Below, one piece after another: positions 1 through 52,696 of a stretch of DNA of 52,696 nt. The position numbers and the translations under genes are program-made. The notes under the pieces were generated by a model, which saw only the letters and a list, made by a program, of their open reading frames with translations, ran no database searches and had not been told where the DNA came from. Position 1 is the first letter of the stretch; every line of letters starts with the position of its first letter. Origin of the DNA: Micractinium sp. NFX-FRZ (lineage: Eukaryota; Chlorophyta; Trebouxiophyceae; Chlorellales; Chlorellaceae); NCBI GenBank assembly GCA_029339195.1, contig JAPTJF010000437.1:1-52696 (forward strand), read 5' to 3'.

Positions 1-81
1 TTGCGGCGAGGTTGAATGAAACCCACGCTACTGGCCGTCACCGCTGCTTTGCTCCTCTCACCCAAACACCCGCCCCCCCCC

Positions 82-82
<1 letters not shown>

Positions 83-122
<40 letters not shown>
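83..122 (+). repeat. 40-nt poly-C tract before a 3' splice site
   Basis: An uninterrupted run of about 40 C lies in the intron of the first serpin gene, ending 11 nt before the CAG acceptor at 131-133. In the sense orientation it serves as an extreme, pure-C polypyrimidine tract. The true length may be uncertain because such runs are hard to sequence. Confidence 0.8.
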
Positions 123-123
<1 letters not shown>

Positions 124-133
124 CTTCTTGCAG

Positions 134-1123
134 GTTTGAGATCGAGTTCTCCTCCAGCCTCAACGCCCCCCTGCAGGGCCCTCAACATCAGCCAGCCCTT
201 TGTGGGCGGGGACCTCACCCAGGTGGGGCGGGCAGTCAATAATATTAAATTGCAGTACACTTTATACTAAGAGGTAGTTAATCGTTGATGGGGCCCTGCC
301 CCAGGCACACCCCGCTTGGTCGGCGCTTGCCCTGGTGTGGCCACCCGCTTCCCCCGCCCTGCCTGGCACGTGCACCTGCCTGGCCACACCTGCCTGGCCT
401 GCCTGGCGCGTACATCTTCCTGGCTCGTGCACCAGCCTGGCCTGCCTGGCCTGCCTTTTTTCTGCCAGCCCGGCCCGGCCCACGTGGCCCCCTTACTGAC
501 ACCCCCGCTGTCTCTACCCTGTGCCCAGTGCCGCCCCCTGCGCAGATAGCGGAGGGGCAGGGCGGTGCACCCTCCTGTCTCCGGCCCTGCCATCCCAATC
601 TTTGTCTGCCACCCCTTGCCGGATTCTGACCCCACCCTTTTCTGTGTCCCCACGCTGCCACCAACAGATGGCGGAGGGCCCGGACGGTGCGCCGCTGACA
701 GATCTGGCAGTGAGCGAGGTGCTGCACAAGGTGTACGAAAAGGTGCGGCCCAGTTGATTTGCTCTGTACGATTGGCCTTCCCAGGTTGATCATGACCCCC
801 AAGATTGGTTCTGAGGCGGCTGCGGTGACAAATGATTGCTGACGCCCTCGGCATCCCATGTATGGGTGCACGATTTCTTATGCAGGCTTCATTGCTTTCA
901 CCACTGCGACACTCCCTTGTTGTAGGTGGATGAGAAGGGCACGGAGGCGGCAGCAGTGACCATGATTGCCGTGGCCACCTCGGCGCCCGACGGGCCCATC
1001 AAGCCGCCCGTTGACCTGCGCTTTGACCGCCCCTTTGTGTTCGACATCGTGCACGGCGCCAGCGGGCTGGCGCTGTTCAGCGGAGAGATCTACAAGCCGG
1101 AGGCGTGGGAGGCGGCGGCTTGA
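134..1123 (+). CDS. Serpin (serine/cysteine protease inhibitor), 3' part, frame broken
   Basis: This is the C-terminal third of a serpin whose 5' exons lie before the window. Visible exons are 134-222, 668-742 and 926-1123. The first holds F-E-I-E-F and P-F-V-G-G-D, typical of the strand before the reactive loop. The second is the H-K-V-Y helix/strand region. The last carries the hinge D-E-K-G-T-E-A-A-A-V-T, a predicted scissile region around A-T-S-A, the D-R-P-F-V-F strand, and the C-terminal end P-E-A-W-E-A-A-A. Exon 134-222 is 89 nt, while its counterpart in the neighbouring serpin is 88. An extra G near 175-178 (CAGGGCC, where CAGGCC would stay in frame) breaks the frame between L-Q and A-L-N-I. 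That is either an assembly error close to the poly-C run or a real lesion making this a pseudogene. Loop and C-terminus share one exon here, unlike in the neighbour. Serpins trap target proteases by insertion of the cleaved loop. Confidence 0.85.
541..571 (+). repeat. Degenerate intronic copy of an exon start
   Basis: The stretch repeats, with several changes, the acceptor and first codons of the serpin exon at 668 (AG, A-T-G/A-G-C-G-G-A-G-G-G, then GGCGGTGC). In the copy the second codon position reads TAG, so use of this acceptor would truncate the protein. It is one of many exon-border copies in this window. Confidence 0.6.
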
Positions 1124-1740: not shown

Positions 1741-1762
1741 TCATGCGCTGCCGGTCCAGGCC
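1638..1762 (-). repeat. Three tandem copies of the serpin stop-codon region
   Basis: Segments at 1638-1670, 1688-1720 and 1731-1762 share the core GCGCTGCCGG(T/G)CCAGGC next to a CGTC-TC-ATC motif. The last copy contains the real end of the minus-strand serpin (A-W-T-G-S-A-stop); the other two lie in its 3' untranslated region. Spacing is about 45-50 nt. Confidence 0.65.
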
Positions 1763-4700
1763 TCGGGCCGGTACACCTCGCCCGTAAACAGCGCCAGGCC
1801 CGACTGCTTGTGCACGATGGCAAACACAAAGGGGCGGTCGAAGCGCAGCTCGATTTCCTCCCTGCGAAGCCACACAGGGGGGGAGGAGGGAGGGCACGTG
1901 AGCAGGATCGTGACAAAAGGCATTCGGCTGGGGCACCCTGCATGCACAAGAGAGTCCTGAAGCTTCGGACGCAAAGCAAGCAGTGCAGTCGAGCAAGCAG
2001 TGCGGTCGAGCAAGCACGCAGAAGAGTCGAGCAAGCAGCGGATGCGGGCAAACAACAGCGCAATCAAGCAGGCGCAGCAGTGATGGTGGCTGGAATGCTG
2101 CCTAGCAGATCGGCGCAGACGGGGTGCCCTGCTGCGCCTGCCGTGCCATGCCGTGCCATGCTGTGCCGGTCCATCGTGCCCTGCTGTGCCATGCTGTGCT
2201 GACCTGGGCACGGGCATCATCGACCTCAGCATGACCACAGCAGTGGCAGCCGCCGCCTCCGTCCCCTCCTCATCTACCTACAGCAGGCCCAGCAGGCGCA
2301 GCGTGGCACAGCACAGCACGGCACAGCAGGGAGGCGAATCAGCAGGGTGGCAGCAAGGAGCTCACGGCGGGAGCTCGAACATCGCGGATTCAGCCACGAA
2401 GACGGCAGTGACGGCGGCAGCCTCTGTGCCCGCCTCGTCTACCTGCGGGCAAACACCCAGCAAGTGACGGCCGTGGCAGCACAGCACACTGCACGGCACA
2501 GCACAGCAGCGCAGCCCAAACCCTGCCCCTGCCCTGCGCCGCCCCTGCGGCATCTGTGCCGCAACATCCAAGGCCCAGCCTCCAGCTGCTCCCGACCGAA
2601 ACCGAAACCTGCCTCCACCCCCTTCCTCTCCGTTGCTTGCACTCACACACGGCGTCGGTGCGCCCGACGCCGGCATCTCCCGCAGGGGGACTATGAAGAC
2701 AGGATAACAAGCAATGTGCGCAGTAGGGGCCCTGCAACCTTCACATTGGCGTGCACCTTGCGCACACTGTCAGAGCACACACACAGACCTCCCGCAAGAA
2801 AAGATAAGAGTAGACCCCTGACATAGACCCCTCACCTTGGCATACACCTTGTGCACAACGTCGGAGACCACCAAGTCGCCCACCGGCGCCCCGCTGGCAT
2901 CCGCTGCGATCTGCGGGCCAGGCAGAGACAGAGCAGGGGCGGGCGGCAAGCAACGGGGTGATGTGTGGGGGAGGGATGTGTTGGTGACATAAGGGGGGGA
3001 TGGGGCAATGGTGCTGCATGCCCGGATCTGTGCTGCGAGGAGCAAGACGAAGGCAGACTGAGGACAGGGAGTCGATGCAGGCAAAACCATGCGGGGCGTG
3101 AGCACGCAGCACAAAGAGGGCGACGAGGCGGGAGCCCAACAGGCACGCACCTGCACGATGTTAATCCCGCCACCACTAAGAGCGGCACAGTGATGCGCAG
3201 CCCAAGAAAAAGCCACCGAGAACGAGGGGTGCGCGGCAGCACAGAGGGTGAAACCAATGCCACGTCACCCCAATGTCCTGACGTGTGCTGTACATATCAG
3301 GACATTGGCAGTGTGCTACGTATAGCACCCACCTTCGTGATGTCCCCGCCCACGAAGGGCCGCGTGACGCCCAGCGCCTGCAGCGCACCGTTGAGCGACG
3401 TCTGGAACTCCACCTCAAACCTGTGGGCGACCCGATAGGGGGACGGGCGGGAGAGAGGGCGCATGCATTCGTTAACAACCTCGTTCAGCACCCACGGCAC
3501 TGTAAGTCGTGAGGCGTGAGGCAGGTAGCCGGGAGCTGCAGCAACGTCGAAAGTTGGAATGCAAGAGTGGGGAGAAGTCCATGGGAGAAGCGGTGGGGCA
3601 GGAAAGAAGAAAGGGAGTGGAGGGTGGAGGGGGGTGTTGGCCGAGTAGAGCAAGGCCAGCGTCACACAAAAGGATCGACTCCACTGCATCCCTCGACAGC
3701 CAGGGGTACCTCCCAAACACTGTCTATCACAGAGACACAGATGTGTGTTGACCCATCTCCTTACTTGGGCAGGTGCACCTTCACGTCTGCCCGAGGCACG
3801 TGCCACACGCCGCTTCCGGCACCGTCAGCGCTGCCGCCGCCCGACAGGCTGGCCAGCACCTGCACGCACGGTTGGGAGCATTTGATGTTGGGACGCAAAG
3901 ACGCAACACTTTAATACATGCCATGGTTGGGGGTTGACTGCAGCTGGGGGCCAGGTGTGGGATGGAGGCTGGCATGTTTTGCAGGCAGCATCAGCAGCAG
4001 TGCGTGCCTTGGCTGAGCAGAATGCGGCTGCAACATCGGCAGGTGGCAAGGAAGCAACGGCAGCGGCAGCAGCAGCAGCAGCAAGAAACGGCAACAGACA
4101 CGGGTGTCCGAGAAGCAGCAGCAGCTCACCGCCTGGCGGCAGGCCTTCAGGGCGGCACCGTACGGCACCACTTTGCCTCCCGCCACGGCCAGCCCCCGCT
4201 GGCCTCCCTCCGCCGCCTCGTCCGTCAGCTGGCCGCTTGGGAGCGCCGCCACGGCTGTGGCACACACATGGGTAAGGGGAAGGGAAGGCCGGGGTTACGT
4301 GTACGTGTAAATGGGATGGGTTGGCGGCTAATTGGGGTGGATACGATGGCCAACCACCGACAAGCGAGCAGTTGGGTCCCGTCCCTTGATCCACACGAAT
4401 GCAGCAGCTGCCCTGTGGCCCGCCCTCCCATCTTTGCTCCCCACCCGGCTGCTGGGGTGAGCTGCACACGTGCCGTGCTGCAAAGGGCGGGCCACTCCCC
4501 ACCCACCACAGACCGCACCGCCGTGGCTGGGCAGAGGCCCAGGGCACAGCCCGCACAAAACCAATGGAGACCGCACTTTTCGACTTGAAAAAGGCAGAAC
4601 ACCCCTCGCTCACCGTAGAACTCGTGGCCCCTGTAGGGCAGCTGCACAGCGCCGCACTCGAATGCGGCGTCGTCCACCTTGGCCGCCAGCTTGGCAACCT

Positions 4701-7700
4701 GCACGGAGGTGCAGCGTGGGGCGGTGGTGCAAGCTGTGTGGCGCACTTGTATCGGGCACGCATCCCCAACACACTGCATTGTGTGTTAAAACACGGGAGA
4801 TGGGTCTCTTGGTTTGCGCACTTGTAGCGACCGGCCGTCTTTGACGGTGCCTGTGTGCGCGGCAGGCATGCGGCAGCTTGCGCTGCCGCACGGCATCGCC
4901 CAGTGCTGCACCTGCTCTGGCCCGTGACGCTGCATCAAACCCCTGCAGCACCTCCCCTGCTGCCCCCGCCCCCGCCCACCTGCACCGCGCTCTTCCCCTT
5001 GTATGTGTGGAACATGGCGGCCGCCTGCAGGGGGGCGGCGCCGTGCTGCAGGGGGTAAAAGTCCATGGGGTGGGTGGACGACCTGCAAAGGGAAGAGGAG
5101 GCCGGCGAGGAGCGGGGTGTGTGACATCGAGGTGAGGCCATGCAGACGATGCTGGCATGCTGTTTGAGCGTCCTGCCAGGGCATGCTGAATGGCGTGCTG
5201 CCAGGGCATGCTGCCAGGGGTGACCGCTGTTGCCACTAGTGTCACTGGCGGAAGGTGTGCCAGCGGCGGGCCCTCTCACGCACTTGCTGAACTGGTGCAG
5301 CCAGAGGCCCTTGAAGTAGACGGCGTTGACCAGGATCAGGATGGCCTGCGCATGGGGAGAGCAGGAGGCACGTGGCGCACGTGCTAGGGTGTGTGCAGGT
5401 GCCAGGCTGGGCACCGCTGTGCTGCCCACGGCCCGCCTCTCCCCACAATGCTGCGTGCGCGCCTGGCCGACGCCCTTCCAAACAACAACAAGAGGCATGT
5501 CCAACAACATACATGTGTGCATTCAAAGGCAACCCCTCACCTGTTCCAGCACCCCACTCGTATAAAACGAATTGAAGAGAGGCATTGGATGAAGTCGCAC
5601 CGAAACGTGCACACCTGTGCTCACCTGCGCCGCCATGCCCTCGTCCACAATGGAAGTGATCTTGCCGTGCGTTGCCTCGGACACCCAGTCGTTGACGGCT
5701 GCGGCGCTGGTCAGCGGCTGCGCCGCCGTGCCAAACACGGTCTTTAGGGCCTGGGCATACCCAGCCTGCAGCTGGTACCTCTGCAAGGCACAGGCAGGGC
5801 AAGCCAGATTGGGCCAAAGTTTAGTGGGGCGTAATTACTCTGCAAGTCACAGGCAGGGGCAGGGCGAGGGGGACGAAATGGGCAGTGCCCCCCCGCGTGC
5901 AGCTGGTACCTCTGCAAGACACAAGAGCAGGGGCAGGAAAGGTAGGGCCGGAGTAGGCGGTGGGAAGAGGTCAAGCAGGGCGAGGGGGGCGGGGCAGCCT
6001 GGGGCCAGAGTGGGCGGTAGGAGGGAGGGAGGCAGGGAACACAGCCCAAGGTGTGCTGACGAGGGATCCGTAGACTTGCAGGGCACACCAAGCAGGTATC
6101 GAGGGGGGGCGGAAGCAGGGTAACTGTCGGCGCGCTGGCAGCAGTGTCAAGGCAGGCTGGCAGCAGTTGGTGGCAGGCTGTACGCTGCCAGGCCGGCCGC
6201 AGCTGGCACACCTGTGCCAGCCAGGCGCTGTTGGCGTCGCTGACCGTCAGGTCATCGGTTGGAGGCTGCGCGGGGCAGGGGGCAGGGCGAGGAGATGAGG
6301 AGGGAGGTGGGGGGGAGTCAGCCAGGTGAGATGTGCAAGGGGGCATTCGGCAGGTGGGTGCCTCACCGGCCTGCCTGCCCACCACCTTGTTCAACAGGCG
6401 CAGCTGCCGGCTGACTCTGCCCAAACCCGCCTGCCCACCCTCGAAAACCACGCAGCCAACAGTAGCCAGTGGCATGCAACCGCACCTTGTTCAGCGCTGC
6501 GCGGCTGCCTGTCAAGTCTGCCCCAGCTAGCGCCCCACCAACTCGCCCCACCCCACCCATGCAATCTTCCCATCAGTCCCCGACGTGCAGGCACCACAGA
6601 CACACAGCCGCACCTTGTTCAGCGCGGCGCTGAGCCCGCTGAGCTGGGTGTTGAGGGCATCCAGCGTCAGCGCGTCGCCCGCAAGGCCGCCGCCATACAC
6701 AACCGACTGCACGCGTGGGCAGCGGGAGGTCGGAGTTTGGGACGGCTCAGTCAGCTCTAGACAAGCGTGCTGGCGGGGCAGCCGTCGCGGACAGCAGGTT
6801 GCAGGGCGGGGCGGGGCGTGGCCGGGGAGCTACACTGACTCTGCGGCATGCCGGGGATGCAGCGGCCCTTACGCAGTCAACTGCAAGATGGCGTGCCGGG
6901 GCACAACTGTAAGCCAGTATGTACGCCTCGCCGGCTGGTGAGCTGCCAGCGCGGTGAACCTGCCACGTCGCCTCCCCAGTGCCCTAGGCCTCCCTGTCAT
7001 CCCTCCCCCCCTGGCAGCCTCGGCGCACCTGCAGTTGGCGGTACGACTCCCCGCCGGGCTTCACCCCATTCAGCAGCATGCCCAGCGCCTGGGAGATGCC
7101 GTAGGGCGACAGGAAGCGGCCGTCGCCTGACTGCGCGGGGGTGTGGTGGGGCAGGCGGGCACAAAGGCAGGGGGTCACTTATTGCAGCAAGACCGCATGC
7201 CAGGCAATCTTTAGACAGGGCATGAAGCGACCGTCGCCCGACTGCAAAGCTGAGCTCAGGCGGTTGGGCAGGAAGGCATGCGGGCAGGCAAGGGAACCAA
7301 ATGCGGTGCGAGGGCAGGCGACAGGGCGTGTACACAACCCGGGGAACCGCCGCAGTGCCCAGCTCGCTGCCGGCTGCTGCTGTGCACAAAGGACTCAGAA
7401 GTGTGGGGCAAATCTGCCAGCCACGGCAGGCGCATGCTGGTGTCCAAAAATGGGACTTCATTGCTGTCAACTGTAAATGGCCCCTCCACGGGCTGCCTGC
7501 TTGCCCACCGCAGTCTTGCCCACCGCCAGCAGCTGGGAAGACCCACCTCAGGTGCCAGCTTGTCAAACAGCTCATTGCCAAAAGAGTTTATGCTGCTAGC
7601 CAGGCTGGCACTGGGGTGGCTGAGAGAGGATCCCATGCTGTGGGATGCGGCGTTGCCGCGTGCTGCGGCGACGATCGAGGAGGCGGGCCTGGGCGCTGGC

Positions 7701-48072: not shown

Positions 48073-51000
48073 TCATGCCATGCTGGCCTCATAGAAGCGT
48101 GAATAATCGAGCGCCCCCTGCAGCTGGCGCAGCTCGTCCGCATGGCTGCCCGCCTCAGCCGCCTTGGCCGCCAGCACGCGCAGCAGCAGGCGCTGGCGTG
48201 CGCCAAAGTCGCGACGCAGCGCGCCCAGTGCGCCATGCAGCTCGCCCAGCCGCCGCTGCAGCTCCGCCCGCCGACCCGCCCACTGCAAGCCAACCGGGGG
48301 CGGGCGCTGCGGTACCTCAAAAGCCTCCGCCGCTACGTCAATATCTGCCGCTACATCCTCTTCCACCTCTGCCTCCACCCCAGCTGCCGCCGCCGCTGCT
48401 GCCGCTGCCGCTGCAGCCCCTGCTCCTTGCTGGCCGCCACCGCTGCCGCCGATGCCAACGTCACCCATGTGAGCGAGCGCTTCGAGGGCTGCTGAGCAGG
48501 ACTCGATCTGCCGGCGCAGCGCGCAGTACTGCAGGCAGGCGTTGAGCAGGTGCAGCAGGCCCTCGTGCACCAGCCGGGCGACGCCGTCAGGGCTGCAGGC
48601 AAGCAGGCAGGCAGAAAGGTTTGTTGCCTGTAAGGGAGGGGCGGCAGGTGCATGCTGTGCCGCCGTGCCAGCAGCGGCCGCCGCTGCAGCAACATGTCCA
48701 GAGCCTGGAGAAGCACTCAAATCAGGGGCAGCGGCGGCAGGCAGCTGCAGCAGCCGCAGCAGCTCGCGCCCACCCAGGCAGCCTCCACAGCAACAGCAGC
48801 AGCAGCCTGCCCAGGCAGCCTCCACTGCAGCAGCAGCAGCAGCGGCATGCCCCCCACCCAGGCAGCATCCACAGCAGCAGGTGCGGCCCACCTGAGCAGG
48901 CAGTACCGCGTGACGGCACGTTGGTACTTGGCCCGGCAGCGGTGCATGGCGTCCAGGGAGGTGCACGCCTCAACCGCCTGTCGGTTGGAAAGCAGGTGGG
49001 CAGGCGGCGGGGCGTGGACCAGTGAGCACACATTGCCGGAGAGCCGAGCGCACACGGTGCAGGGCGGATTGGTGCAGTGCATGGGCAAGGGGCAGGGCCT
49101 CAGCAATTGTAAGCAGCCAATCGTTGGTGCCCTGCTGGCCTGCTGGCTGGCTGGCGCCCACAGACGCTCAAGCGCAGGGAGTCGAGGCAGGGCGTATGCC
49201 CACATTCAAACCCTGCCTGCCAGCTCATCACCTGCTCCAACCAGGCGCCAGCTGCCAGCACCCGATCCTTGATGTACTGTAGTACTGAGTCCACCAGGTG
49301 CATCATCTGCAGTACCATGTCAGTACCAGGCAGGGCAGTACAAGGCAGGGGTCAGGAAGTCAGCGGGGCGCAGGGTGCGTACCTCAATCCAAGTAAGGCA
49401 CAGCGCACGAGGGCAGGGCAGCGCCCGGGCAGGTACTGCTGCCCGGCACCTGGCATGCCAGCCGCTGATTCGCGCATACCAACCTGCACTGCCACCCACA
49501 TGCTCCTGGCCTGTGTTGTGACCCATTAACGCTTTAGGCTCGTCAGGCAGGGCCCCACCTTGTGTTGCAAGCACATTGCCTTGGTGCCGCTGTGACCCAT
49601 GCCCACCCGGCCCCATGCCACCCGGCCCTGTCAGCAGCATGCCCCGGCCAGCGGCAACCAGCCGCACCTGGTGCTGCAGCCCATCGCGTGCCGCGCTGCT
49701 CTGGCTTGCCCGCCGCCCCGCCTTCCAGGCGTGGTAGCGCACCGACTGAAGCGACTGCTTCACCCAGCGCAGCTGCAGCAGGTGGGAGGTGCATTGCAAG
49801 CACTCAGTGGGCAGGTGTGTGGCATGCATCATTGGGGATGAGCGGTATCTACCGCAAGGGACAAGTCTATGTTGGAGGCAGGGCGAGCAACAGCGAGCTC
49901 TAAGCACACCCACTGTTTGCCCGCGCACCCAAGGTTGCGAAATGCCCACAGCTGATACCCCTGACTTGTAGCAGCAGCACCGGTACTGCATTGTACTGCT
50001 CCAGCATGCCCTCCTCAGCCATTCACCCCACCACAGCGACACCCAATACGTATGCGCCCACCTGCAGCAGCAGCACCAGTACCGTATTGTACTGCTCCAG
50101 CATCCCCTCCTCAGCCACCAAGCTCAGCGGCCACCCCGGCTCCAGGCGCAGGCGCAGCCTGGCCAGCGCGTGCACCCGCTGCGGCACGTGCTGCCCCTGC
50201 TGCCCCTGCTGCGCCGCCGTCGGGGGCAGGATGTGGGCCGAGGCGCGGAGCGTGCGCCCCTTGCCCCCGGCTGCCAGCGCGTCCTGCAGCGCTGCATTCA
50301 GCTCGAACTCCGACACACGGTCCATGCCGCCGGTCATGGTGCTGCAGGGCGGAGAGTGGGGGACGGGCAGGAGAGGATGCTGGTAGGTGGGCAGTGCAGG
50401 TTGCAAAGAACGGGCAAAGGTGCTGGAGGCGAGCGGGTGGGTGGGCAGAGCAGGGCGGGGGAAGTGGATGGGCTGGCAGGGAATCAGGCACGATGGAGGA
50501 TTCGGCAGTGAAGAAGGGAACGGGGAGGGGAGGCGAGCTGTGGAGGGGCCGCATGCCTGGGGGGACCCTGGGTGCTCATTTGCGGCAGCACCCCATGGCC
50601 TCCGTGCAGCAGCGGGATGATTCAGAAGCAGAGCATGATTACTTGACCGCGCTTGCACGCCACTTGGATGCCTGTCAAGGTCCCCAGTCCTGCGCCCCAC
50701 CTGATGCGCCTCAGCAGGAAGTTGACAAAAGGCTCCAGCACAGGGGAGCCCAGCAGGTAGGTCTCCCGCAGGGCCGCAAGCTGCAGCCCAGAAACACCCC
50801 GGCAGGGAGGGTAGGTTGAGGAGCGTTGCAACACAGCAGGGCAATGCAACACAGCAAGGGGCACTTGGCAGGTGCCACAGAGGCTGCCGGCAAGTGCTGC
50901 CAAGGCAAACAGCCAGTCAAACCTCGCAGGCCGAGGTGTTGATCAAGCTGATGTCACGGCAATCGGCATGGGGCAAGGGATGCAAAAATCCTCCTCCCGC

Positions 51001-52635
51001 CTTCCCTCCCTCCCCACCTCACCTGACGCAGCAGGCCGTGCCGCAGCAGCACAGCACACAGCTCGCCGCCAGCGGCCTCCACCTGCGACTGCACCGGCCG
51101 CAGCAGGCAGCCCTGCAGCAGCACACCCAGAGGTGGCGCCTCCGCCGCCAGTCGAGGCTGCAGCTGGCGCCGCGCCCCTGCAGCGCTACCGCCACCCAAC
51201 ACACTGTCGAGGCCGCCGTTACTGCTGCTGCTGCTGCCGCTGACAGGGGTGGCGTGCCGTCCCCAGAGTTGGTCAGTGATGCTGCCTGCAAAGGGCTGGA
51301 GGCCCAAGGGCACGCCATAGCTGCTGGCCAGCCGCTGCTGCCGCCTGCTGCTGCTGCTGCTGCCGCTGCTGCCACCCAGGCAGTCGAGGACGTGGAGCTG
51401 ATGTGACAGTGCTGCTGCCGTGTGGCGGTACCACTCCTGCCAGCTGGTGCTGTCAAACTGAGGGCTGGCGGTGCGGCCTGCCTCGCCTGCTGAGGTCGCT
51501 GCATCATCCGTGCCTGCCTGCCCTGGCGTGTCGGAAGGTTCCGAAGGTGCAGCCACAAGGCAGGACTCCAGCGGGGCTGGTGGAATGATGAGCAGAGGCA
51601 GCTGCTCCACCGCTGCGCACGATGCCTGCGCCGCCCGCGACTCAGCTGCCTGCCGCATGCGCTCCCCCATGCTGAGCCCGCCCTTGCCGCTGCGACTGCT
51701 GTGTGTGTGGCCACTCCTGGCAGCATGGCCCGCAGCACCGGTCGGGTCCACATGGGATGCTGAGCTGTCAAGGATGGTTGCCAGGCTGGCAGCCGGCAGG
51801 CCCTCTGCTGACGCTGGCAGCTGCGGCAGCGCCGGCAGCGTGTCCTCTTCAGGCACGTGCAGCGCTTGACCGCCGTAAACTCCCCCTGGCACCTGCCAGT
51901 CGCCACAGAATAGACGGCTGCTGGCGCTCCTCCCGCTGCTGCTGCTGCCCCCAGGGCTCCCGCCGCTGCACCCATCCTCGCCCTCGCCCTCAGCGGCAGT
52001 CCGCCAGGGCAGGCGAGGCAGCAGCTGCTGCCCTCCATGTGGCAGCTCACTGCTGGACAGGCTCAGCTGCTCCTGGAGCTGGGACTCCAAATTGGACAGC
52101 AGCTGCTGGTGCAGCTGCAACGGCTCTGGGCCTGGGCCTTCCTCGCTGCCTGCCTCGCCTACCAGCGCCAGCCTGGCAGCCGCTGCTGTCGGCAGCTGTG
52201 GCATGCCATACGGCCCCTGGCCCTGGCGCTGCCCCAGCTGCTGCTGCTGCTGTTGCTCCGCCACTGCTGCAAATCCCAAGGCGCCGTACTCTGAGAGCCG
52301 GCGTTTGGCTGGCGACGGCGGCCCTTCCGCAGTGTCGCCTGCCGCCCCGCCGCCCGGCGCCGCACCGCTGGTGGCAAGCTGCCCTGCTGTCGACGTCGCC
52401 GCTGCTGCTGCCGCTGCTGTCAGGCGCCAGCCACAGTACGCCTGCAGCAGCAGCGCCGACTTGCCGGCTGCCAGGATGCTGTCTGCCAGAGGGGCCAGGA
52501 AGCAGGGCACTGCGGGCGCCTGAGGCCCGCCGCTGGGAAAGGCAGCGGTGCTACCTGAGGCAGCGCTGCCGGCAGCGGGCCGCAGGATGAAGGCTTCTGT
52601 CCAGAAGCGGGGGCTGTCGGTTTGGATGTCTGGGC
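48073..52635 (-). CDS. Gamma-tubulin complex component (GCP5-like), 5' part outside window
   Basis: Seven visible exons: 52635-51023, 50780-50701, 50341-50062, 49772-49668, 49306-49232, 48977-48892, 48592-48073, in phase throughout (about 919 aa seen). GCP-family landmarks in order: S-P-R-F-W-T-E-A-F-I-L-R, P-C-F-L-A-P-L-A-D-S-I-L-A-A-G-K-S (typical of the N-terminal domain), L-R-E-T-Y-L-L-G-S, E-F-E-L-N-A-A-L-Q-D-A-L, W-P-L-S-L-V, L-E-Q-Y-N-T-V-L-V-L-L-L-Q-L-R-W-V-K-Q-S-L, M-M-H-L-V-D-S-V-L-Q-Y-I and L-V-H-E-G-L-L-H-L-L-N-A-C. It takes part in the ring complex that nucleates microtubules. The Y-N-x-V-x-V-x-L-L-Q-x-x-W pattern favours GCP5 (or GCP6) over GCP2-4. The first exon holds a 400-residue Gln/Ser/Gly/Ala-rich insertion between the two GCP halves, longer than in animals. 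The upstream intron runs into the window end. Confidence 0.85.
49968..50020 (-). repeat. Copy of a GCP exon end in the next intron
   Basis: About 50 nt repeat the end of exon 50341-50062 (E-E-G-M-L-E-Q-Y-N-T-V-L-V-L-L-L), some 95 nt downstream. The donor in the copy is TACAAG, which is not usable. Confidence 0.7.
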
Positions 52636-52653
52636 CTGCATGGAACAGGGGAA

Positions 52654-52680
52654 GGGGGGGGGGGGGGGGGGGGGGGGGGG
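52654..52680 (-). repeat. 27-nt poly-G tract (poly-C in the gene's sense)
   Basis: In the sense of the GCP gene this is a C run lying shortly before the acceptor of exon 52635-51023, mirroring the C run before the serpin exon at 134. Confidence 0.8.
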
Positions 52681-52696
52681 CCTTGGGGGGGTTGTT

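What the first reader, a model, noticed from the sequence alone, without database searches (positions are those of the whole stretch)
1861..2836. Mutually exclusive reactive-loop exons in a green-algal serpin
Seen directly: two separate exons, 2442-2366 (77 nt) and 2277-2204 (74 nt), each begin in phase 0 with a serpin hinge (G-T-E-A-A-A), each end with two spare bases that complete a codon with the G at 1861, and each have splice sites. Using both, or neither, shifts the frame, so only one can be used per mRNA. The scissile regions differ sharply: A-E-S-A (small or acidic) against M-L-R-S (Arg, trypsin-like, or LR-type as in plant serpins). Known: insects, nematodes and some other animals swap serpin loops by alternative splicing. 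I know of no such case in plants or algae. Inferred: one gene can inhibit two protease classes. The neighbouring serpin has loop and C-terminus in one exon, so this arrangement arose after the paralogues split, by an intron gain plus exon duplication.
Basis: partly seen in the sequence, partly recalled or inferred. Interest (0 to 1): 0.92.

Follow-up and report, generated by a model that had tools for sequence, protein, structure and literature searches.

The report
Alga serpin with swappable bait exons
A gene from what is probably a Chlorella-like green alga carries two intact, side-by-side versions of the exon that codes for a protease inhibitor's bait loop, and only one of them fits the reading frame at a time, so the cell would likely make two inhibitors with different targets from one gene, as insects do.

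Summary
A complete serpin gene (minus strand, 7636-1741, about 440 aa) has two loop exons, A (2442-2366) and B (2277-2204), with matching phases and splice sites. Joining both gives an immediate stop; joining neither shifts the frame. B is the ancestral loop: the ten closest relatives compared (one odd gene model set aside) all have its Met-x-Arg/Lys motif. A has Glu in place of the Arg, seen in none of the 39 closest loops. A is not a neutral relic: its hinge differs from B's by 8 synonymous and 2 non-synonymous codons, whereas the scissile part differs mostly in amino acids. New here: exon B sits inside a 23-bp RNA inverted repeat, the only one of its kind in the window, which could switch the choice; and the neighbouring serpin carries a dead copy of its loop-exon start. 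I found no transcript of A; mutually exclusive use is inferred, about 60%. The known relatives are animal serpins with alternative loop exons; my searches listed none in plants or algae. The 'trypsin-like' label for B depends on register: by the 17-residue rule the Arg is P2. A new variant of a known kind.

The parts
1741..7636 (-). serpin gene; isoform A 441 aa, isoform B 440 aa from the ATG at 7636 that relatives support
   Evidence: exon model; Pfam PF00079; homologues
2836..2910 (-). constitutive exon before the loop exons (serpin strand leading into the hinge)
2366..2442 (-). loop exon A: VDEAGTEAAAVTAVFVAESAMFELPP; Glu-Ser-Ala at the scissile region; acceptor CCCGCAG, donor GCC|GTGAGC
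2204..2277 (-). loop exon B: VDEEGTEAAAATAVVMLRSMMPVPR; ancestral Met-Leu-Arg-Ser loop; acceptor CTGTAG, donor CAG|GTCAGC
2278..2365 (-). A-B intron, 88 nt, the shortest of 15 introns in the model (others 112-431); its only CTNAY branch-like motif lies 26 nt from A's donor
2309..2331 (-). upstream arm of the inverted repeat that encloses exon B
2179..2201 (-). downstream arm of the inverted repeat, from position +3 of exon B's donor
2491..2513 (-). weaker copy of the upstream arm, in front of exon A (83% complementary to the downstream arm region 2177-2199)
1741..1861 (-). shared last exon (EEIELRFDRPFVFAIVHK...), stop at 1743-1741
926..1123 (+). neighbouring serpin paralogue, loop plus C-terminus in one exon; its 5' part is probably on contig C434
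813..852 (+). broken copy of the neighbour's loop-exon start in its preceding intron (in-frame stop), a contrast within the locus

Best explanation
The serpin gene at 7636-1741 (minus strand) contains two complete, phase-matched reactive-loop exons, A and B, and is predicted to be spliced so that each mRNA takes only one of them, giving two inhibitors with different bait loops. Shown: the anatomy, the frame lock (A+B stops at once, neither shifts the frame), the serpin identity, the match of B's loop to the closest relatives, and the past coding constraint on A. Inferred: B is the default product, an intracellular serpin with a basic bait residue (Arg before Ser), plausibly aimed at an Arg-specific protease such as a metacaspase or a trypsin-like enzyme. 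A replaces that Arg by Glu and would block a different protease. Inferred mechanism of choice: the two introns around exon B pair into a 23-bp helix that starts 3 nt into B's donor and covers the region where B's branch point should lie; when it forms, B is looped out and exon 13 is joined to A and A to the last exon; when it is open, B is used. The 88-nt A-B intron and the stop at the A-B junction would guard against using both.
For: Anatomy and frame lock. Serpin family and fold; AlphaFold2 model of the close relative P0001 (pLDDT 88.2) matches solved serpins. Constraint on A: hinge (14 codons, cut by me after P6) 8 synonymous, 2 non-synonymous, 4 identical; the rest 7 non-synonymous, 2 synonymous, 1 identical, 1 codon gap; kept versus changed residue, Fisher P = 0.010; with A free and B purified, at least 8 synonymous with at most 2 non-synonymous changes came up in at most 2 of 4000 runs at each of 9 divergences. 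Synonymous codons look saturated (8 of 12 differ, 5.5 expected for independent choice), so the pair is old, yet A kept frame, hinge and both splice sites; the neighbour's copied loop start did not. B is the loop of the relatives: Met at P4 and Arg/Lys at P2 in 10 of 10 (P0001-P0007, P0009-P0011; P0008 set aside), 16-23 of 25 loop residues identical. A's kind of loop exists in remote serpins: P2 is acidic in 17 of 215 loops and P0071 (32% identical) shares A-E-S-A-M. Hairpin: the only inverted repeat of 20/23 or better with 50-400 nt between the arms in the window, against 1 in 10 block-shuffled windows; all 23 positions pair as RNA, one as G-U, -49.7 kcal/mol; introns flanking B pair at z -4.15, 0 of 200 shuffles as low, the other 13 internal exons z -1.29 to +1.00. 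Hint of a second loop segment elsewhere: the annotated C. variabilis protein P0008 and the transcript-like P0006 differ by one extra stretch and by the loop, else identical. Mutually exclusive exons occur in a green alga (Volvox cyn23, RT-PCR; PMC4378016, passages).
Against: No transcript or close relative with an A-type loop: 0 of the 39 closest loops, and the alga's own RNA could not be searched. A's donor is the weakest of 15 by the gene's own matrix (2.18), although its intron side GTGAGC is standard. Short copies of exon ends occur in this gene's introns (exons 3, 4, 6, 13 at P 0.01 or less; weaker at exons A and the last; 30 comparisons), so duplication alone is not evidence of use. In the neutral simulation a low non-synonymous count by itself is not rare at the lowest divergence (0.43); only the joint pattern is. 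The arms are quasi-repetitive; the 974-nt region folds no better than shuffles (z -0.89, 3 of 20 as low), though the 266 nt around B do (z -2.62, 1 of 200); B's donor itself is not unusually buried by the 9-nt measure (0.42 unpaired), only its branch region (0.17) and downstream arm (0.13) are the lowest of 14 exons; the predicted share of the downstream arm paired to the upstream arm is 0.89 at span 150 but 0.31-0.36 at wider spans, and pairing to the arm before A is 0.00. Protease targets are guesses.
Confidence: 0.6

Rival explanations
1. Exon A is a retired loop exon: an old duplicate that was once used but is no longer spliced to any extent; the gene makes only the B protein.
For: No A-type loop among the 39 closest relatives; A's donor is the weakest of 15; exon-end copies occur in both serpin genes and the neighbour's copied loop start is plainly dead.
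Against: Hinge codons of A kept 12 of 14 residues at saturated synonymous divergence; open frame, both splice sites and correct phase all intact, so any retirement must be recent.
Confidence: 0.25
2. B has been silenced in this lineage by the hairpin and its weak TAG acceptor, and A is now the main loop: a replacement, not a switch.
For: B has the only TAG acceptor and the only GTC donor of 15 each; the inverted repeat encloses B alone.
Against: B's loop is 23 of 25 identical to that of M. tetrahymenae P0001 and has the motif of the ten closest relatives, as expected of an exon still under selection; B's donor scores 6.97 against 2.18 for A.
Confidence: 0.08
3. The pair works as an on/off regulator: joining A to B creates a stop at once and sends the mRNA to decay, so exon A tunes the amount of the B protein and has no protein product of its own.
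For: A+B gives CCG-TAG at the junction and A read into its intron meets a stop after one codon; A has a fair acceptor (5.14) and a weak donor.
Against: Such a role needs no preserved hinge reading frame in A, yet it is preserved; the 88-nt intron is the shortest in the gene.
Confidence: 0.07

Closest known systems
Manduca sexta serpin gene-1 and other insect/nematode serpins with alternative reactive-loop exons (Jiang 1994, 1996; Kruger 2002, seen only as reference-list entries)
   Same: One serpin scaffold, several tandem exons coding the reactive loop, one used per mRNA.
   Different: Animals; many cassettes; as recalled, exon 9 also carries the C-terminus. Here there are two cassettes that hold only 24-25 loop residues, followed by a shared C-terminal exon.
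Drosophila Spn42Da (PMC4006314, passages)
   Same: Loop exon switching on a common scaffold, hinge conserved; structures 4p0f/4p0o are among the matches of the relative's model.
   Different: Four loop exons whose variable region includes the conserved H-P-F turn after the loop; no frame lock or exon hairpin is described in the passages read.
Plant LR serpins and Chlamydomonas CrSERPIN (PMC3534287, PMC10609998, passages)
   Same: Plant lineage; B's L-R-S triplet equals the plant Leu-Arg-small reactive centre.
   Different: No loop switching in the passages read; in B the L-R-S lies one residue closer to the hinge, so Arg is P2 by the P17 rule; CrSERPIN's sequence was not compared here.
Mutually exclusive exons controlled by RNA pairing (PMC6071210, abstract and passages)
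   Same: Tandem duplicated exon with part of the flanking intron and complementary intron arms; a duplicated arm facing one partner arm.
   Different: Described there for insect and human genes; here the second arm (before A) is not favoured in the computed ensemble.

Membership tests
Serpin (Pfam PF00079) | Full-length match to the serpin profile | tested here: met
   223.3 and 227.0 bits, cut-off 27, two stretches each; AlphaFold2 model of relative P0001 matches solved serpins
Inhibitory serpin | Hinge: Glu P17, Gly P15, Thr/Ser P14, small residues P12-P9 | tested here: met
   EAGTEAAAV in A, EEGTEAAAA in B; Val at P9 of A is also found in relatives such as P0006 and P0011; the consensus itself is recalled
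Inhibitory serpin | Covalent trapping of a protease | not testable with these tools
   needs an assay
Serpin with alternative reactive-loop exons | Two or more tandem exons coding complete, different loops with the same phases | tested here: met
Serpin with alternative reactive-loop exons | Each exon found in mature mRNA, one at a time | not testable with these tools
   no RNA of this alga available; relatives' transcript-like sequences P0002, P0003, P0006, P0007 show B-type loops
Mutually exclusive exons with competing RNA pairings | Intronic arm complementary to arms at both alternative exons | tested here: inconclusive
   duplex energy z -5.0 for the arm before B, -3.7 or -0.9 for the one before A depending on the stretch, but the ensemble pairs only the arm before B
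Plant LR serpin | P2-P1 Leu-Arg counted from Glu P17 | tested here: not met
   B has P3-P2-P1 Leu-Arg-Ser by that count (rule)

The most novel reading that the evidence does not exclude
A serpin bait-loop switch outside animals: a green-alga gene swaps a basic bait (Arg) for an acidic one (Glu) by choosing one of two minimal loop exons, with the choice set by an RNA hairpin around the ancestral exon, and an old, shared origin hinted at by a second loop segment in Chlorella variabilis. It would be an independent invention of loop switching in the plant lineage, in a single-celled, probably membrane-anchored setting.
Probability: 0.4. Interest if true: 0.85.

Novelty: new variant of a known kind. 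Interest (0 to 1): 0.72.

Why it matters
If true, loop switching by alternative splicing, described for insects and nematodes as a way to widen the reach of one serpin, arose again in a single-celled green alga, in a simpler form: 24-25 residues, one frame lock, one hairpin. It would give a small, testable system for how mutually exclusive splicing starts, and a lead on what algal serpins do, since one product would keep the basic bait that suits Arg-specific proteases such as metacaspases and the other would not.

Tried and rejected
Rejected: chance open frame (both exons carry hinge, phase and splice sites); allelic or assembly copies (A and B have saturated synonymous divergence); A borrowed recently from the neighbour's loop (A also differs from that exon at many positions); a further intact loop exon in the window (six-frame motif scan). 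Considered and not tested: circular RNA from exon B (74 nt is small). Led nowhere: DNA of relatives (genome contigs and viral-contig scans with P0001, 57 and 4 pattern matches, no relative); a 200-kb genomic background for the inverted repeat, a count of the arm in the genome and a look for metacaspases in this genome (tool busy, see below). In their place the inverted-repeat control used the window, ten block shuffles and five loci of 3-7 kb, four of them overlapping on contig C434 and one on C485. Splice matrices rest on 13 donors and 13 acceptors of this gene only, including those of the doubtful first exon. The paper PMC7534427 was searched for mutually exclusive exons in Chlamydomonas and holds only the definition.

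Full report
What is there. On the minus strand the window holds a complete serpin gene. I built it exon by exon from the sequence. From the ATG at 7636 to the stop at 1741 either isoform reads open: 441 aa with exon A, 440 aa with exon B. Both are serpins by Pfam (223 and 227 bits, cut-off 27). Isoform B matches 195 distinct solved chains at E 0.001; the 60 shown are serpins by name or, for antithrombin, PAI-1, ovalbumin and the like, by general knowledge. An AlphaFold2 model of the relative P0001 has mean pLDDT 88.2 and its 50 listed PDB matches are serpins in the same sense; residues 398-404, just after the scissile region, have pLDDT under 50. The spliced isoforms themselves were not modelled. 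That the organism is a Chlorella-like green alga is inferred from these closest relatives (69% identity at best).

The two exons. A is 77 nt and B 74 nt; both begin in phase 0 and leave two bases that pair with the G at 1861. A+B stops at the junction and neither shifts the frame. Codon by codon A and B align over their whole length with one extra codon in A after the scissile region. In the hinge (14 codons, a cut that I chose after P6) there are 8 synonymous and 2 non-synonymous differences; in the rest 7 non-synonymous, 2 synonymous, 1 identical and the gap. Kept against changed residues differ between the two halves (Fisher P = 0.010). I simulated the case most favourable to a dead A (B purified, A free): at nine divergences the observed pattern came up in at most 2 of 4000 runs. 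Few non-synonymous changes alone are not rare at the lowest divergence (0.43), but then synonymous changes are few too. Of the 12 hinge positions with the same residue 8 use different codons, where independent choice would give 5.5. So the pair is old, and A was a coding exon for most of that time. This does not show that A is used today.

Which loop is older. The protein search returned 954 proteins, of which 120 were listed; I printed the sequences of 41, tabulated the loops of the best 40, 39 of which have a hinge, and later scanned all 223 proteins of the three searches. Ten of the eleven closest (P0001-P0007, P0009-P0011) have Met at P4 and Arg or Lys at P2, as B has; the eleventh, the annotated P0008, is treated below. 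Over the 39, P2 is basic in 29, Thr in 9, Gly in 1. B is 23 of 25 identical to the M. tetrahymenae loop. A has Val-Ala-Glu-Ser in P4-P1, seen in none of the 39. Among all 215 loops with a hinge, P2 is acidic in 17, all beyond the 40 closest, and one remote serpin (P0071, 32% identical, source not named) shares A-E-S-A-M; so a loop of A's kind is workable, but A's origin in this family is not documented. P0002, P0003, P0006 and P0007 lie on contigs of 1.66-1.75 kb that hold the whole coding sequence, so I take them to be transcripts (inference; the source label 'lgn' I read as Logan from memory); all are B-type. Two searches with short queries gave 80 and 24 hits (103 new proteins, 22 of them read, all scanned). 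One, P0124, is an unspliced piece with a B-type loop exon followed by an in-frame intron and the last exon, so the intron after the loop exists in another alga.

One hint of a second exon elsewhere. The annotated C. variabilis protein P0008 and the transcript-like P0006 are identical except for one extra stretch in P0008 and the loop: VDESGTEAAAVTAIVACG in P0008, VDEAGTEAAAVTAIMMCRCAMPMPR in P0006. The simplest reading is that the gene model used a second hinge-coding segment of that genome. I could not see the DNA.

Where is the scissile bond? The rice serpin paper counts P1 from the Glu at P17 (PMC3534287, passages). By that count B reads Arg-Ser-Met and A Glu-Ser-Ala at P2-P1', so P1 is Ser in both. 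But in the close relatives the conserved feature is a basic residue, mostly followed by a small one, as in plant Leu-Arg-small serpins, which suggests cleavage after the basic residue with a loop one residue short. Either way the exon swap reverses the charge at the same aligned position. A Chlamydomonas metacaspase is Arg-specific and its interaction with a serpin served as positive control in a two-hybrid test (PMC10896300, passages); that makes metacaspases a lead for B, no more.

How one exon may be chosen. Exon B is enclosed by arms 2309-2331 and 2179-2201, 22 of 23 complementary, 23 of 23 as RNA with one G-U pair. It is the only such pair (20/23 or better, 50-400 nt apart) in the window; ten block-shuffled windows gave one, and five further loci, four of them overlapping, gave none. 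The introns around B pair better than any of 200 shuffles (z -4.15), the other 13 internal exons lie between -1.29 and +1.00. The downstream arm begins at position +3 of B's donor, the upstream arm lies at -54 to -32 of exon B. A similar stretch precedes A (38 of 41 aligned bases identical, gaps aside), as expected if exon and arm were copied together, the route proposed for mutually exclusive exons in PMC6071210 (abstract and passages). Against this: the arms are quasi-repetitive, the whole 974-nt region folds no better than shuffles (the 266 nt around B do, z -2.62), B's donor is not specially buried by the 9-nt measure, and the arm before A does not win pairing in the computed ensemble. I therefore favour a simple hairpin that hides B over a two-way docking competition.

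Splice signals. Scored with the gene's own 13 other sites, A has a fair acceptor (5.14) and the weakest donor of 15 (2.18, because of CC before GTGAGC); B has a fair donor (6.97) and a weak acceptor (1.44, though four other acceptors score within 2 bits of it or lower), the only TAG among 15. The A-B intron of 88 nt is the shortest of 15, and its only CTNAY motif lies 26 nt from A's donor, which may hinder A-to-B joining (inference; 4 other introns have no such motif in their last 110 nt, so the motif is a weak guide).

The locus duplicates exon pieces. Short copies of exon ends lie in the introns next to exons 3, 4, 6 and 13, those of 3, 4 and 6 with the splice signal, and the neighbouring serpin has a broken copy of its loop-exon start with an in-frame stop. 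This is the setting in which A could arise, and a contrast: those copies are fragments or decayed, A is not.

Verdict. The sequence finding is right and the second exon was long under coding constraint. Mutually exclusive use is likely but unproven. Loop switching is known from insects and nematodes (PMC10513286, PMC4006314, PMC2689274, passages). Ten library searches (eight on serpins with splicing, algae or both; the other two) listed no plant or algal case among the 8-20 titles that each shows; I did not open most of these papers. A plant serpin review has no hit for splic-, isoform or exon in its main text and names CrSERPIN as the only characterised algal serpin (PMC10609998); a barley and Brachypodium serpin survey has no hit for four splicing terms (PMC7692276).

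Noticed in passing
7636 (minus strand), proteins P0001-P0009: The close relatives begin MGxxxS (9 of 9 of P0001-P0009; 11 of 38 of the best 40 that start with Met have MGxxx[ST]) and so does this protein from the ATG at 7636 (MGSSLS), an N-myristoylation-like start (motif recalled): probably a membrane-anchored intracellular serpin, while the neighbouring paralogue seems to have a signal-peptide-like start.
   Followed up: partly
window 7241-7221, 6502-6486, 5911-5891, 2775-2746; L023 about 1994-1974: Short tandem copies of exon ends, most with their splice signal, lie in neighbouring introns of both serpin genes; whether this is a genome-wide habit was not tested.
   Followed up: partly
2203-1862: The intron after exon B is 342 nt, a multiple of three and stop-free in B's frame (intron 7, 201 nt, is too), so retaining it would insert 114 residues; P0124 from another alga also reads open through its shorter intron here.
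   Followed up: no
window 1-1123 and contig C434 1-4740: The neighbouring serpin seems to be split over two contigs that both end in a poly-C run (C434 reverse strand, C437 forward strand); the pair of adjacent serpin genes appears conserved by consecutive locus tags in M. tetrahymenae, Micractinium sp. and C. ohadii.
   Followed up: partly
protein P0071: A remote serpin (32% identical, 431 aa, source not named) has the same A-E-S-A-M stretch in its loop as exon A.
   Followed up: no
48076-48969 and 50957-52696, minus strand: Open frames with weak, below-cut-off matches to gamma-tubulin complex component C- and N-terminal domains.
   Followed up: no
proteins P0191 and P0201 (contigs of 1,089 bases each): In another alga exon 13 and the hinge seem fused without an intron, with a different loop (VDEAGTEAAAATLVAVQFKRAVARPRR).
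   Followed up: no
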